From assembly GCF_026072915.1 (NCBI RefSeq), contig NZ_AP025943.1, positions 1,550,001-1,614,000 of the forward strand: a stretch of DNA of 64,000 nucleotides. Direction: 5' to 3'. Below the pieces are notes generated by a model. That model saw nothing but the letters and a program-made list of their open reading frames with translations. It ran no database searches and had not been told where the DNA came from. Of this stretch, positions 39,333 through 44,791 are shown one piece after another. The stretch comes from Akkermansia biwaensis. Its GTDB lineage: Bacteria; Verrucomicrobiota; Verrucomicrobiia; Verrucomicrobiales; Akkermansiaceae. A program made the translations under genes and the position numbers. Numbering within the stretch: position 1 is the first letter of the stretch; each line of letters opens with the position of its first letter.

Positions 39333-42300
39333 TTAGAACGAGTAGCTGACGGAACCGTTGATACCCTGGGCTGTCAGGCCGGCGCGGCTTTCCAGGGAGT
39401 ACCCGATGCGGGCGCCCCAGCGGCTGCCGAAGGTGGCGCTGACTCCTGCGCTGACGCGCAGGGCCGTGCGTCCCTTGTTGACGCCGCGTGCCGTCCAGGA
39501 CCCCAGATCGCTGCCGACCGTGCCCTTGGGATTGATGCGGCTGAGGTCCTGTGCCACGGCCACCGTGATTCCGGGTGTTAGCGTGGTTTTGGTGCCTGCG
39601 GTAAAGGTGCGGGACACGGTAATGCCTGCGGGCAGAGTCCAGTTCTGGGCGCGGGCTCCGCTGAAGGTGCGTGCCAGGTCGCCGCTTTCAGTGAAGCTGT
39701 CCGTCTTCCCGGTCATGAATTCCAGCCCGGCAAAGGGTGCGATGACCAGCTTGTTCGCCAGCTCTTCCGTCCAGGTGGCGTAAACGGCCGCTCCGAAGGA
39801 GCCCGCGTCAAACTCCCCATGGGCGGAGGTATCCGCTACGCGGGCGTTTCCGTCAAAGGAGGTGGTGCCGAAGGCGGCGTATCCGTCCAGGGTCAGTTTC
39901 TTGTTCCGGGAGGGAGTATAGCGGCCGTAGGCCATGACCATGAAGGAATCCGCATCATAGCTGGAGAAGCCTCCCTTGTCCTGGAAAGTGCCGAAGGATT
40001 GGCCGACGGCCATCCCCACCAGGGCGGAAGAGGAGAACTTGAAGTCCGCGCCGACGGCATAGCCGCCCGCATCGTACTTGTACCCGTCAATACCGTGGCG
40101 GGCGTTCTGGTCCGTCCAGGAGCCCAGTCCGCCAACCCATACGGAGCCGCGGCCGGAGGCTACGGGAGCCATGGCGATGGGGGAACCCTTGGCATCCACG
40201 GCCTGCACGGGCCTGGCAGCCGGGCTGTTCAGACCCTGGGCTGCGGAAAGTGCCCCCTGCGTCCGGACGAGGGACGCAAAGCCCTTGAGGGCGTCATTGG
40301 AGGCCCAGGCCGCATTGACCACGGTTTCTCCGCTGACAGACTGGATCATGGCTGCCGCGGCATCCGCGCTGGAGGTTCCCAGCAGGTTTTCAAAGAACCT
40401 GTGGGCGGCGGAGCCGTCCCGCACGTTCATCCGGGCCTGCTCCATGCCTGCCGCCACTCCGGAAACGTTGCCGGAATATCCCTGCATGGGAGAAGCCACG
40501 CCCTTCATGTTCTGGGACAGCCGGATGGTGCCGTCCTCATTGGCGGCGGCCGTTGTGGAAACGAAGGCGGAGTTGAACAGGGGCAGCCCGGCCGCATCCG
40601 CCCCGGTAATGGTAACGTTGTCCACGGATGAGATGCCGGAGGCCGTGTGGGTAAGATCCCGTCCATTGCCCGCTTCGTCAATGTGCCAGAGCTTGACGGA
40701 GGAATTGCCGTTGAACGTGATGTCGTTGAGCAGCAGGGAGGAGCCTTCCCCCACTTCCACCACGGCATTCCCGTTGAGTTTCAGAGTATCGCCGGCCAGG
40801 GTGGAGTTGTCCGTCAGGATGATGCCCTTGCCGTTGATTTCATAGTCCGTCAGGTCTTCAACGCCCAGTTGGGCACCTTCCACGACAAGTTCGTTGTCAA
40901 TTTCGGCCACATGGCCCACGATCAGGGAACCGGCTCCGGAATACTGGAGGAAGTCGCCGCCGAATCCGTTGTCTTCCTGGTCCCTGCCGCCATAGAGCAG
41001 GTTGCCGCCTCCCAGCTGGACCAGGCTGGCGGAGCCGCGGATCCATTCCGGATCGTCATCCAGGGTGAAATAGTCGGCGTCGGAAATGCCGCTATTGATG
41101 AGGGTGGTTGCGTCCGCGTCGGTATTGACTACGATGGTAGCTCCGTCTTCGGCAAAAATGTCATTGGCTTCACCTCCCGCCATGTTGCCGTCGAAAAAGG
41201 AACCGGAGCCGATGACCAGAAGGCGGTCTTCCATCAGGTGAATGGCGCCGCCAAGGCTGCCAGCGGTATTATCCGTGAAAACCGTGTTTTTACCGAGCCA
41301 GATATTGGCCCCTTCGTTTTCGAAAAGGTCGTCCACATTGTCGCCTTCCTGCCAGGCAAGGTTGGTCGTCAGTTCGGAGGCGATGGCGCCTCCGTTGGCT
41401 CCGGCCCGGTTACCGGAGAAGACGGAACCGTTGCCTACGACGATGTCCAGAACTTCCGTGGTCAGTTTGGAGGTCCGTTCCCCGTCAACGTAGGCCATTG
41501 TCTCGGCAATGTTGTTCTGGGCGAAAACGGCTCCCCCGGACCCGGAGGCCGAGTTGTCAATGAAACGGTTGTTTTCTCCGATCACGATGTCTCCATGCGC
41601 ATACAGGGCTCCCCCTCTGGAAATATCCATGGCGGCGGACCTGCCCGGAGCCGTGCTGTTCATGAACGTATTGTTGCGGCCCGTGGTGATTTTGTTCTCA
41701 CGCTCCGTAATGGTGACGGTCCCGTTGAGGATGTTTCCGTTTTCATCCGTGTCCCTGATGCTGGCCTGGATGAGGCTGTTGTCCGAGTCGCTGAAGGCGC
41801 TCATGTGGTAAACGGAGGCATCTTCCGTTCCCTGGTAGGTGACGTTGTCACCCAGCGTGATGGTATTTTCCGCCGCGACGGTGGTCATGGTCAGGGTGAC
41901 GTTGTTGCCGATGACGATGCTGCCCCCGTAGGTGCCTTCGCTGTATTCTCCGGAGGCCAGAACGTAGTCGCCGTCCGCATTCTGCTTGAGCGTTCCTTCA
42001 AAGGAAATGGTCCCGCGGGTGGAAACGCCTTCATCGTCGATGTCTCCCACCGTATCCGCTGCCCAGATGTCGGCCATCTGGCTGCCGGAAAGGTCGTTGT
42101 CCCCGGTGATGGTGGTGTTGCTGCCAATGTAGATGTCTCCGCCCTCTGCGTAAATGTCCACGTCATTCAGGGTGGAATGGTCGCCGATGGAGACAGTGGC
42201 CTGGTCGCCCACGGCAGTGGTCATGTATACGGTCCGGGTGCCGTCTTCCTTTTCAAAGATGGAGACGGAATCCAGTTCCACGGAAATGGCGTCCAGCGTG

Positions 42301-43415
42301 ACAGAGGTCAGTTCCGCGCCATTTCCTATGAAGATGGAGCCTTCGGCATCCAGATCATAATTTTCGATGGAGCTGTTGCTGCCGATGAATATGTCGCCGT
42401 ACAAACCCATGGATTCCTGAATGCTGGTTCCGGGCTGGTAGCGGCCCTGGTTGTCCTGGATGGAAATGCCGGACGTGAGCACCAGGGCTCCCGTGGTGAT
42501 TTCCGCCCGGTCCGTGGCGGAAATGTCGCTGCCGTCTCCCAGGAGAATGTCGCCGCCGGTATAGAGGTCGCCGTCTCCTGCCGTACTCAGGTCGGTATCA
42601 GTCATCGTAACGGCGCCGGCACTGAAATCGATGCCCCCCGTGGCTCCCACGGATTCCGACTTGCCGATCAGGGTTTTGGAATCTTCGTCTTCATAAACGG
42701 ATGTCGTGTTGACGGCCCCAGTGGAGATGAGAGTGGAATCGGACAGGGAAATATCTCCATGGGAGATAATTTTACCGCGGACGCCGTCGTTCATGGACAA
42801 GTCCATTTCGTCGATCTGGACATCCTTTCCCAGTTCCATGGCAATTTCTCCTGGAGTATTGGTGACAACCGTGGAGATGAAGGCTCCCGTTTCGGGGTCG
42901 ATTCTTGTCTCTATGGAGGTGGAATGTCCGGTGGTGACATTGTTTCCGTCAAGAAAGACGCCGTCTCCCGCTACCAGCTTGTTGTTTTCCAGTAACAACC
43001 ATGTGCCGTCCAGGGTGGAGCCGCTTTCTATGGAAAGGATGATTCCACTTTCATCCGTTCCGCTGAGCATGCCGTCCGTCATGCTGCCGACCCGGACGGT
43101 TCCCTCTCCTCTTACATTCACATTCTGCATGGAGACTGCGGACATGTCCCCGTAGTTGAAATTGGAGACGGTGCCATGGCCGTCCGAGGCAAGGGTGATG
43201 CGGGCGTCTGCGGGCAATGCCGTCAGGTCCGTTCCCTGAAAGTCAATGGTTCCGGTGATCCTGAGCGTATCTCCATCAGCAAGCTGGTTCCAGGCTTCCT
43301 GAAATTCTTCCAGATTGGAAGCGGTATATTCTTCGGCTGCGAAAGCTTGGCAGCCGAGGGCGCACATGGCTGTCAGTAAAGCCCGGCGCAGAGGTAGTGG
43401 TAAACGAGGATTCAT
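39333..43415 (-). CDS. Pmp-like autotransporter (type V secretion)
   Basis: A 1360-residue surface protein that exports its own passenger. Signal peptide ending near residue 27 (CQAFA), then a long right-handed beta-helix passenger of repeated short strands. Residues ~600-745 contain polymorphic-membrane-protein motifs, FxxN alternating with GGA(I/V): FIDNSASGSGGAVF, FSGNRAGANGGAI, FTDNTAGSLGGAI, FFDGNMAGG. The C-terminal ~270 residues form the autotransporter beta-barrel (from about VWVGGLGSWTDQ, residue 1088) with the terminal SYSF. Likely an adhesin or surface antigen. The start lies 70 bases from an inverted repeat that bounds the candidate invertible segment, so its promoter may be switched. 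Confidence 0.92.
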   Translation of the reverse strand: MNPRLPLPLRRALLTAMCALGCQAFAAEEYTASNLEEFQEAWNQLADGDTLRITGTIDFQGTDLTALPADARITLASDGHGTVSNFNYGDMSAVSMQNVNVRGEGTVRVGSMTDGMLSGTDESGIILSIESGSTLDGTWLLLENNKLVAGDGVFLDGNNVTTGHSTSIETRIDPETGAFISTVVTNTPGEIAMELGKDVQIDEMDLSMNDGVRGKIISHGDISLSDSTLISTGAVNTTSVYEDEDSKTLIGKSESVGATGGIDFSAGAVTMTDTDLSTAGDGDLYTGGDILLGDGSDISATDRAEITTGALVLTSGISIQDNQGRYQPGTSIQESMGLYGDIFIGSNSSIENYDLDAEGSIFIGNGAELTSVTLDAISVELDSVSIFEKEDGTRTVYMTTAVGDQATVSIGDHSTLNDVDIYAEGGDIYIGSNTTITGDNDLSGSQMADIWAADTVGDIDDEGVSTRGTISFEGTLKQNADGDYVLASGEYSEGTYGGSIVIGNNVTLTMTTVAAENTITLGDNVTYQGTEDASVYHMSAFSDSDNSLIQASIRDTDENGNILNGTVTITERENKITTGRNNTFMNSTAPGRSAAMDISRGGALYAHGDIVIGENNRFIDNSASGSGGAVFAQNNIAETMAYVDGERTSKLTTEVLDIVVGNGSVFSGNRAGANGGAIASELTTNLAWQEGDNVDDLFENEGANIWLGKNTVFTDNTAGSLGGAIHLMEDRLLVIGSGSFFDGNMAGGEANDIFAEDGATIVVNTDADATTLINSGISDADYFTLDDDPEWIRGSASLVQLGGGNLLYGGRDQEDNGFGGDFLQYSGAGSLIVGHVAEIDNELVVEGAQLGVEDLTDYEINGKGIILTDNSTLAGDTLKLNGNAVVEVGEGSSLLLNDITFNGNSSVKLWHIDEAGNGRDLTHTASGISSVDNVTITGADAAGLPLFNSAFVSTTAAANEDGTIRLSQNMKGVASPMQGYSGNVSGVAAGMEQARMNVRDGSAAHRFFENLLGTSSADAAAAMIQSVSGETVVNAAWASNDALKGFASLVRTQGALSAAQGLNSPAARPVQAVDAKGSPIAMAPVASGRGSVWVGGLGSWTDQNARHGIDGYKYDAGGYAVGADFKFSSSALVGMAVGQSFGTFQDKGGFSSYDADSFMVMAYGRYTPSRNKKLTLDGYAAFGTTSFDGNARVADTSAHGEFDAGSFGAAVYATWTEELANKLVIAPFAGLEFMTGKTDSFTESGDLARTFSGARAQNWTLPAGITVSRTFTAGTKTTLTPGITVAVAQDLSRINPKGTVGSDLGSWTARGVNKGRTALRVSAGVSATFGSRWGARIGYSLESRAGLTAQGINGSVSYSF

Positions 43416-43484
43416 GATTTGGTATGTTTGTGTTCATCGGGAAGAAAAGGGATAGAAATGCCTTTTTCTTTCCACCACCTACAT

Positions 43485-43503
43485 ACAGGATTGACAATCC
43501 TGT
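43485..43503 (+). repeat. left inverted repeat of candidate invertible segment
   Basis: ACAGGATTGACAATCCTGT: a 19-base imperfect palindrome (9-base arms around a central A). Its reverse complement matches the right copy at 18 of 19 bases, and the asymmetry is carried only by the central base. Confidence 0.85.
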
Positions 43504-43673
43504 GTTCGTGAATGCATTTGCCTCGTTTACATATTGTTAGAAAATCCTCTTTCCTTTTTCCCGGATAGGAGCGTCGATGTTTTTAATCTAACAAATAGAT
43601 TGAAATTTGTACATGATGAATTAATTCTAAAACCGCCATAAAATATGAAATATTGTAGTTTTTTTACTTGCTA
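43504..43673. other. candidate invertible promoter segment between autotransporter and recombinase
   Basis: 170 bp of AT-rich, non-coding DNA between the two oppositely oriented repeat copies. It separates a leftward autotransporter gene from a rightward tyrosine recombinase gene. It contains several TA-rich hexamers and a weaker inner inverted pair, TTGTTAGA (43534-43541) and TCTAACAA (43587-43594). I cannot decide from sequence which way a promoter inside it points. Geometry, the adjacent recombinase and the surface-protein target all fit a phase-variation switch. Confidence 0.6.
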
Positions 43674-43692
43674 TCAGGATTGTCAATCCTGT
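43674..43692 (-). repeat. right inverted repeat of candidate invertible segment
   Basis: TCAGGATTGTCAATCCTGT: the same palindrome with central T, so it lies in opposite orientation to the left copy. It ends 38 bases before the preferred recombinase start; an alternative GTG start at 43691 would lie inside it. TTGTCA within it could act as a -35 element towards the recombinase. Confidence 0.85.
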
Positions 43693-43729: not shown

Positions 43730-44791
43730 ATGAGGGAACATGTCGAAAATCGCGCCGAATATTTGGCGGCGGAAATGTTGTTGAAAGGGAGCGGGCTGAA
43801 TATGGTGGAGGCGGCTACCCTGGCTCTGGAGCTGGTGCAGCGCTGCGGCGGTTCCCGATGCAGCATGCGCCGCGCCAGAAAGGCCATTGAGCTGGGAGCG
43901 GAGGAACTGAAAAACGGAGAACAGACGGTATCCTTTGCGGCCGCGGTGGATGAAACGCTGAAAGTGAAGTGCGGCCGGCGCCCCACAACCTTGCGGGATA
44001 TCAGGTACTTTACCGGCGCGCTGATGCGCAGATGCCCGGAATTAAAGAACTTCCCGGTCAGGAAACTGACCCCGCAACATTGTTCGCGTTTTCTTGAATC
44101 CGCCTTTTCTTCCGGCAGGCAGCGCTACAAGGCGCGGGCAGTGATGAGCGGAATTCTGAGTCTTTCCCTGCGGCGCGGGTGGTGCAGGCAAAATCCTCTG
44201 CTGCGCGTGGATGCCCCTTCCTTCCGTGAGCAGGTCATTGCCGTACTGAATCCTGAGGAGATAAAATGCCTGAGGAACGCAGCGGAATCTCCCGAATTCC
44301 GTGATTGCGCTCCTGCTGTCTGGATCATGATGTATGCCGGAATCCGTCCGGGGGAGGTGGCCCGCCTCCGGTGGTGCGATGTGGATATGGAAGAAAGGGT
44401 GATTTCCGTAAGACCGTTGGCGAGCAAGACGGGCGGCGCGCGCCATGTTACCGTTCAGCCCGTTCTGGAACGGCTTTTGACAGGGTATGGCATTCCGGAG
44501 GGGAACAGGCCTTTATGCCCGCCGAACTGGCCTTTGCGCTGGCGGCGATTCAGGAAGGAAGCAGGGTGGGGGAGCGGCGGCAGGTTCCGGGCATGGAGGC
44601 CGGACGTTCTGAGGCATACTTACGCTTCCTACCATGCCAAATGGTTCAGGGATTTTCCCCTTCTTCAGATGGAAATGGGGCACCGTTCCTCCACCCTGCT
44701 GCGCGCACGGTACTTGAATATGGAGGGAGTAAGCCGTGAGGGGGCGGCCCTGTTCTGGGAAGTGCCGGAAAAGGAGGAACTCCATGGATAG
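43730..44791 (+). CDS. tyrosine recombinase (probable DNA invertase)
   Basis: An integrase-type site-specific recombinase. Numbering from an upstream in-frame GTG (43691): core-binding domain about 80-180, catalytic domain about 185-350 with Arg219 (YAGIRPGEVARLRW), Lys246 (ASKTGG), Arg308/His309 (DVLRHTYASYH), His331 (MGHRSS) and nucleophile Tyr341 (LLRARYLN). The first position of the HxxR box is Asp305 instead of His, a less usual substitution. ATG 43730 is preferred because the GTG lies inside the right repeat and TACATT ends six bases before the ATG. There is no att duplication, tRNA or phage gene around it, so a local inversion role fits better than element mobility. Confidence 0.88.
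   Translation: MREHVENRAEYLAAEMLLKGSGLNMVEAATLALELVQRCGGSRCSMRRARKAIELGAEELKNGEQTVSFAAAVDETLKVKCGRRPTTLRDIRYFTGALMRRCPELKNFPVRKLTPQHCSRFLESAFSSGRQRYKARAVMSGILSLSLRRGWCRQNPLLRVDAPSFREQVIAVLNPEEIKCLRNAAESPEFRDCAPAVWIMMYAGIRPGEVARLRWCDVDMEERVISVRPLASKTGGARHVTVQPVLERLLTGYGIPEGNRPLCPPNWPLRWRRFRKEAGWGSGGRFRAWRPDVLRHTYASYHAKWFRDFPLLQMEMGHRSSTLLRARYLNMEGVSREGAALFWEVPEKEELHG

What the first reader, a model, noticed from the sequence alone, without database searches (positions are those of the whole stretch)
43485..43692. Candidate invertible DNA switch controlling a Pmp-like autotransporter
Two copies of a 19-base imperfect palindrome (ACAGGATTGACAATCCTGT and its near reverse complement) sit 170 bp apart in opposite orientation. 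On one side a giant autotransporter faces away; on the other a tyrosine recombinase faces away, its start next to the right repeat. The repeats differ in orientation only through their central base, which would define the crossover polarity. Invertible promoters flanked by inverted repeats next to a recombinase are a known phase-variation design in gut bacteria. Here the target would be a surface adhesin-like protein and possibly the recombinase itself.
Basis: partly seen in the sequence, partly recalled or inferred. Interest (0 to 1): 0.85.

Follow-up and report, generated by a model that had tools for sequence, protein, structure and literature searches.

The report
Split-promoter DNA switch in Akkermansia
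A gut bacterium carries a 190-base DNA segment that a neighbouring enzyme probably flips to join two halves of a promoter and switch on a large surface protein, and the same layout recurs in its genus.

Summary
The repeats are real: an exact 18-base inverted pair between a Pmp-like autotransporter and a tyrosine recombinase, with no other exact copy in the genome. The host is an Akkermansia species. Akkermansia invertons (CGGATT..AATCCG) are published, so this is a new member with a variant arm (AGGATT).

Evidence for inversion: six species keep the locus. The 3-base core differs between them (GAC, GCC, GTT) but is always alike in both repeats. The recombinase family usually has its own repeat pair upstream (65 of 78; 33 of 527 other ORFs), and related cassettes occur flipped.

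A mechanism I did not find in print: the promoter is split. A -35 lies inside the segment, the repeat is the 17-base spacer, and the -10 lies outside on the target side (50 of 64 cassettes; 3 of 64 on the recombinase side). In the window the fit is weaker (TTGCTA-18-TATGTA after a flip).

All six orthologues show one orientation, predicted OFF. I saw no flipped copy of this locus and had no reads. Co-switching of the recombinase is not supported.

The parts
43485..43503 (+). Left inverted repeat (arm AGGATT 43487-43492, core GAC 43493-43495, arm AATCCT 43496-43501); predicted recombination site and promoter spacer
43674..43692 (-). Right inverted repeat (core GTC on + at 43682-43684)
43504..43673 (.). 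Interval predicted to invert
43668..43673 (+). Predicted -35 (TTGCTA), now at the recombinase end (OFF); TTGCTA in five of six species, TTGATA in the sixth (L226)
   Evidence: TTGCTA with an 18-base spacer also in L080 and L130
43480..43485 (-). Predicted -10 (TATGTA on - strand; TATGTA in 4, TACATA in 2 of 6 orthologous loci), one base outside the arm of the left repeat, on the target side
43586..43614 (.). Block ATCTAACAAATAGATTGAAATTTGTACAT, 26 of 29 bases kept in the 77% sister L017; role unknown
39333..43415 (-). Target: 1360-aa Pmp-like autotransporter (Autotransporter beta-domain 1092-1340; Chlam_PMP repeats)
43730..44791 (+). Tyrosine recombinase, 353 aa from the likely ATG (366 aa from GTG 43691); predicted to act on the flanking repeats

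Best explanation
This is a self-contained phase-variation cassette. The recombinase encoded at 43730-44791 binds the two AGGATT-NNN-AATCCT sites and inverts the about 190 bases between them. The interval carries a -35 (TTGCTA) at one end, and a -10 (TATGTA) sits just outside the left site in the autotransporter leader. In the sequenced state the -35 points at the recombinase end, where no TA follows at the right distance, so the autotransporter promoter is broken (OFF). Inversion puts the -35 beside the -10 with the recombination site as an 18-base spacer and makes a promoter (ON). Shown by comparison: the site pair and its conservation, the concerted core change, the linkage of such pairs with this recombinase family, flips in related cassettes, and the split -35/-10 layout in the genus. 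Inferred: that this recombinase acts on these sites, that the locus flips in cells, and that the weak TTGCTA-18-TATGTA promoter works.
For: No other exact copy in the genome. The locus is kept in 6 of 76 genus genomes, the window's included, with paired sites at the same place; cores GAC, GCC, GCC, GCC, GTT, GTT match between the two copies in 6 of 6, although L222 differs from the window at only 4 of 174 interval bases. Recombinase family: repeat score of at least 11 upstream of 65 of 78, against 58 of 676 random stretches and 33 of 527 stretches upstream of other ORFs. Flipped intervals with both flanks colinear: L104 against L107, L100 and L110; L127 against L138. Core match in 66 of 66 fetched CGGATT pairs (of 93 found with the core left free). 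Split promoter: TA at a 17-base spacer on the target flank in 50 of 64, on the recombinase flank in 3 of 64; at least 4 of 6 TATAAT matches in 45 against 1. Second set: TA one base outside the repeat on one flank only in 54 of 66, against 2-18 of 66 at each other offset from 0 to 39. Published: inversion seen in reads and by PCR at CGGATT..AATCCG sites of Akkermansia (PMC13343947; PMC11892184; passages read).
Against: All 6 orthologues have the same orientation, so no flip of this locus has been observed. The six cores are not six events: the pattern needs only two changes. The window's own promoter match is weak (4/6 and 3/6); the score ties between the two flanks for the window, L066 and L067, favours the recombinase flank in L017, and picks another hexamer (TGTATG, spacer 16) as equally good. 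On the recombinase flank, hexamers with at least 4 matches to TATAAT do occur at spacers 20, 23 and 31 in 14-17 of 64 cassettes, and on the target flank TA occurs at spacer 22 in 20 of 64. Among CGGATT pairs with a good -35, 9 of 48 have TA on neither flank and 3 on both. Most fetched CGGATT pairs of this genome lie far from the five family recombinases, so some enzyme acts in trans and could act here too. No reads, expression data or biochemistry.
Confidence: 0.72

Rival explanations
1. The switch is real, but a recombinase encoded elsewhere inverts the segment in trans, and the neighbouring gene is only a passenger.
For: Of the CGGATT-type pairs fetched from the same genome, only the one at 3005706 has a member of this recombinase family beside it (other recombinase families were not looked for). 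A conserved recombinase without repeats of its own (L013, orthologues L070-L074) is a candidate.
Against: The exact AGGATT site pair occurs only here in the genome and travels with one recombinase clade (one side of a branch, SH-aLRT 100). Arm type, in classes that I set by pattern, follows the recombinase tree: 15 changes against a shuffled mean of 38.6.
Confidence: 0.15
2. The paired palindromes are operators: a dimeric regulator binds both and loops the intergenic DNA to repress the divergent genes; nothing inverts.
For: Each repeat is itself a palindrome, and orientation is constant in 6 of 6 orthologues.
Against: Operators need no matched cores in opposite orientation, yet cores match in 6 of 6 orthologues and 66 of 66 CGGATT pairs, 0 of 66 in direct reading. 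Relatives show flipped intervals.
Confidence: 0.07
3. The locus was an inverton but is now locked OFF: site and recombinase persist, but the weak promoter halves no longer switch the target.
For: Orientation constant in 6 species; weak -35/-10. Two genomes (G074, G082) keep only fragments similar to the recombinase and no such site in the fetched stretch.
Against: Both sites and the TTG and TA..TA elements are kept in all six, and the recombinase aligns over at least 1011 of 1096 bases; long divergent target ORFs were checked in the window, L066 and L067. The OFF layout also dominates cassettes with stronger promoters (59 of 64).
Confidence: 0.15

Closest known systems
Akkermansia muciniphila invertons, motif CGGATT..AATCCG (Jiang 2019, not held here; described in PMC13343947 and PMC11892184, passages read)
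   Same: Same 6-base palindromic arms around a short core, similar length (published example 191 bases in all, window 208), near surface-protein genes; one published example lies near two autotransporter genes.
   Different: Arm AGGATT instead of CGGATT and its own adjacent recombinase. I could not see the published Akkermansia promoter motif, so I do not know whether the split -35/-10 was noticed.
cps1 capsule inverton of Akkermansia (PMC13343947, passages read)
   Same: An invertible segment between such sites sets capsule ON or OFF in A. muciniphila, shown by reads, PCR digests and density fractions; both orientations were also found in A. massiliensis and A. biwaensis.
   Different: The target is a capsule locus; the word recombinase does not occur in the main text.
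Bacteroides invertible promoters and E. coli fimS (recalled)
   Same: A recombinase inverts a short segment to switch a surface structure.
   Different: There the promoter lies wholly inside the segment (recalled); here only the -35 seems to, and the site is the spacer.
Junction promoters of insertion-sequence circles such as IS911 or IS2 (recalled)
   Same: DNA rearrangement brings a -35 and a -10 to about 17-base spacing.
   Different: Made by end joining of a transposon circle, not by reversible inversion, and not a phase switch.

Membership tests
Akkermansia inverton (CGGATT..AATCCG type) | Short interval between two inverted palindromic sites of this motif | tested here: met
   AGGATT-GAC-AATCCT / AGGATT-GTC-AATCCT, 172 bases between the matched arms; the architecture is met, but each arm differs by one base from the published motif
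Akkermansia inverton (CGGATT..AATCCG type) | Identical core in the two sites read as inverted repeat | tested here: met
   Window and 5 orthologues, 6 of 6; 66 of 66 fetched CGGATT pairs
Inverton (any) | Both orientations observed | tested here: inconclusive
   6 of 6 orthologues in one orientation; flips seen only in related cassettes; no reads available
Tyrosine recombinase | Catalytic domain with R, K, R, H and Y | tested here: met
   Pfam Phage_integrase E 3.3e-11; R206, K233, R295, H318, Y328 invariant in 12 of 12; R295 and H318 aligned to XerD (which stops before Y328); catalytic roles recalled. The usual HxxR histidine is Asp (D292)
XerC/XerD/XerA (NCBIfam equivalogs) | Score above the curated cut-off | tested here: not met
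   46.1 bits against 220 for XerA; 33.8 against 335.15 for XerC; 29.8 against 329.6 for XerD
Pmp-like autotransporter | Autotransporter beta-domain and Pmp repeats | tested here: met
   PF03797 E 4e-43; PF02415 28.9 bits, cut-off 20.6
Split-promoter switch (pattern defined here) | TTG -35 at one inner end and TA 17-18 bases beyond it, on the target flank only | tested here: met
   TTGCTA-18-TATGTA; right flank has no TA there. The full hexamer score is weak and does not separate the two flanks

The most novel reading that the evidence does not exclude
Across Akkermansia, phase switches are split promoters: the recombination site itself is the 17-base spacer between a -35 in the invertible segment and a -10 fixed in the target's leader. 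RNA polymerase and recombinase would then compete for the same DNA, which would couple transcription to flipping. Several site specificities co-evolved with a recombinase family, most sampled members of which sit beside and probably serve a private switch and cargo.
Probability: 0.6. Interest if true: 0.75.

Novelty: new variant of a known kind. Interest (0 to 1): 0.62.

Why it matters
Akkermansia invertons are known, but how they set gene expression and which enzyme flips which Akkermansia site were not stated in the passages I read. A -35 that moves and a -10 that stays gives a simple rule for reading ON or OFF from sequence alone. It points to the target gene of a switch and predicts direct competition between polymerase and recombinase. 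The linked recombinase-site pairs also suggest a set of separate site-specific inversion tools. For this locus it predicts that the large surface protein is OFF in the sequenced orientation in all six species found to keep it.

Tried and rejected
A promoter wholly inside the interval: judged by eye only (the promoter scan tool was not run); the best conserved elements that suit a promoter fall at the edges. A -35 inside the repeat (TTGACA in GGATTGACAATCC): rejected because the core is GCC or GTT in relatives. Recombinase control by the same -35: no TA at 17 bases on that side in 61 of 64 cassettes. Avoidance of shared cores between switches of one genome: not so, CCT/AGG recurs. A gene-direction test in the window's genome was not informative: among the 14 of 19 pairs with TA on one flank, an outward ORF of at least 100 aa starts within 450 bases on 14 of 14 TA flanks but also on 12 of 14 other flanks. 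Flips among CGGATT orthologue comparisons are few in assemblies: 3 of 40.

The first upstream check did not turn minus-strand loci and was replaced.

Literature: nine searches listed no paper whose title or abstract start describes a split or hybrid promoter in an inverton; of the papers listed, I read passages of PMC11892184, PMC13343947 and PMC9820224 (unrelated use of the term) and no others.

Full report
What is there. The window is bases 1550001-1614000 of a single-contig genome of 3,175,525 bases. It is an Akkermansia species: of the 80 named records that hold a relative of the recombinase, 79 are labelled Akkermansia or Akkermansiaceae and one Candidatus Spyradosoma, and the two nearest (88-89%) are Akkermansia. 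Between a 1360-aa Pmp-like autotransporter (39333-43415, -) and a tyrosine recombinase (43730-44791, +) lie two copies of a palindromic site, AGGATT-GAC-AATCCT and AGGATT-GTC-AATCCT, in opposite orientation, identical over 18 bases. The genome holds no other exact copy. The family alignment puts the recombinase start at ATG 43730 rather than at the GTG that overlaps the repeat.

Known background. Two papers, of which I read passages only, show that Akkermansia carries many invertons with the motif CGGATT..AATCCG (PMC11892184; PMC13343947). One lies near two autotransporter genes and changes orientation over mouse generations. Another switches the capsule locus cps1 in A. muciniphila, shown by reads, PCR digests and density fractions, with both orientations found also in A. 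massiliensis and A. biwaensis. Jiang 2019, to which both refer for the motif, is not held. The window's genome has many such pairs: 10 within the limits, others outside them. Its own locus differs in the arm (AGGATT) and in having a recombinase beside it.

Evidence that the two sites recombine. Pairs of CGGATTNNNAATCCG were sought with the three core bases left free; 93 were counted in 15 of 59 genus genomes. In the 66 that I fetched, from nine genomes, the core is the same in both sites read as an inverted repeat, 66 of 66, and 0 of 66 in direct reading. For the window's locus, 6 of 76 genus genomes hold an orthologue over at least 1011 of 1096 bases (74-100% identity, the window's own included). 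All six have the pair at the same place, with cores GAC (window), GCC (L222, L223, L224), and GTT (L225, L226), always alike in both copies; this needs at least two concerted changes, not six. L222 differs from the window at 4 of 174 interval bases, yet both cores differ. L223, L224 and L225 have the same positions as L066, L067 and L017 and are the same loci.

The recombinase family. In one search, 37 of 37 genus genomes had a match at E up to 0.001, 2 to 21 per genome; weak matches may be other tyrosine recombinases. Of 85 recombinase loci examined (the best 80 of 305, plus five), 78 had enough upstream DNA. An inverted repeat score of at least 11 was found in 65 of 78, against 58 of 676 random stretches and 33 of 527 stretches upstream of other ORFs; at 13 or more the figures are 55 of 78, 16 of 676 and 12 of 527. 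Arm sequence, in classes that I set by pattern, follows a quick recombinase tree: 15 changes against a shuffled mean of 38.6, and the AGGATT group lies on one side of a branch with support 100; near-copies add to such clustering. A conserved clade without repeats of its own (L013, L070-L074) may serve the scattered CGGATT sites; this is inference. Flipped intervals with both flanks colinear occur between related cassettes (L104 against L107, L100 and L110; L127 against L138), and flips in 3 of 40 orthologous CGGATT comparisons. All six copies of the window's locus have one orientation.

The split promoter. Reading outward from each interval, one inner end carries TTGACT at a nearly fixed distance from the arm (at least 5 of 6 matches in 48 of 66 CGGATT pairs; both ends in 1). 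Exactly one base outside the repeat, TA stands on one flank only in 54 of 66 and on both in 3; at every other offset from 0 to 39 the one-flank count is 2 to 18. TTGACT, one base, the 15-base site, one base, then TA gives a 17-base spacer. Of the 48 with a good -35, 18 read ON, 18 OFF, 3 have TA on both flanks and 9 on neither. The recombinase-linked cassettes are a second test, because the target side is known beforehand and the -35 was chosen without looking at the flanks. TA lies at spacer 17 on the target flank in 50 of 64 and on the recombinase flank in 3 of 64; hexamers with at least 4 matches to TATAAT number 45 and 1. Smaller peaks exist elsewhere: spacer 22 on the target flank (TA in 20), spacers 20, 23 and 31 on the recombinase flank (14-17 hexamers), which may reflect conserved sequence around the recombinase start. 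With a full score the target flank is better in 53, equal in 9 and worse in 2. The -35 faces the recombinase (OFF layout) in 59 of 64 and the target (ON) in 5 of 64. L104, flipped against its relatives, reads TTGACT-17-TATTAT. Many of these loci are related and not independent, but separate arm types show the same layout, for example L015, L087, L095, L132 and L139.

The window under this rule. The right inner end carries TTGCTA (43668-43673). The left outer flank carries TATGTA on the minus strand (43480-43485), and the right outer flank has no TA there. A flip would give TTGCTA-18-TATGTA. The -35 is TTGCTA in five of the six species and TTGATA in L226; the -10 is TATGTA in four and TACATA in two. 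L080 and L130 use the same TTGCTA with an 18-base spacer, in opposite states, with TAGAAT. The window's match is weak: the score ties between flanks for the window, L066 and L067 and favours the recombinase flank in L017, so for this locus the step is inferred. As sequenced, the autotransporter is predicted OFF. The recombinase is not expected to be switched by the same promoter; what drives it was not found.

Targets. Of 57 divergent ORFs beside cassettes, 28 were scanned, with large ones over-represented. Fourteen match Pmp, PATR, Autotransporter or PEP-CTERM families above a cut-off and one (L075) an outer-membrane barrel below it; four are acyltransferases, two ankyrin proteins, two SIR2-like, one a glycosyltransferase (Gly_transf_sug; it also matches TcdA_TcdB and Caps_synth), one DUF6020, one PMT_2 below cut-off, and two have no match. 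Surface proteins are thus the commonest cargo in that sample. In the window's genome, ten ORFs beside TA flanks were scanned: three match PEP-CTERM, two have PATR matches below cut-off, one is a Sel1 protein, one a type III glutamine synthetase, and three have no match.

How sure. That this is an inverton of the Akkermansia kind is likely; that the neighbouring recombinase flips it is likely but untested; that the promoter is split is strongly supported for the genus and moderately for this locus. I found no report of it in the searches listed, but those cover open-licence papers only and the key 2019 paper could not be read.

Noticed in passing
43730-44791 and L066-L145: The recombinase family has Asp where XerD has the catalytic His of HxxR: D in 72 of 72 loci whose motif was found (of 80) and in 12 of 12 aligned sequences. 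That this is unusual is recalled.
   Followed up: partly
L051 6341-8491 (G000 about 638827-641400): An inverton-like pair stands 231 bases before a type III glutamine synthetase ORF, with TATATT one base outside the repeat on that side; a metabolic gene as target would be unusual.
   Followed up: no
L013 and L070-L074: A conserved recombinase of the same family without its own inverted repeats; candidate trans-acting enzyme for the scattered CGGATT sites.
   Followed up: partly
L227 and L228 (G074, G082): Only short fragments similar to the window's recombinase (71% over 200 bases, 81-83% over 72) and no such site in the fetched stretch: perhaps a decayed copy.
   Followed up: partly
L115, L129: SIR2-like proteins, possibly defence genes, stand divergent from a recombinase switch, so defence may be phase-variable too.
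   Followed up: no
43586-43614: ATCTAACAAATAGATTGAAATTTGTACAT inside the interval is kept in 26 of 29 bases in the 77% sister L017, while the other half of the interval did not align; role unknown.
   Followed up: no
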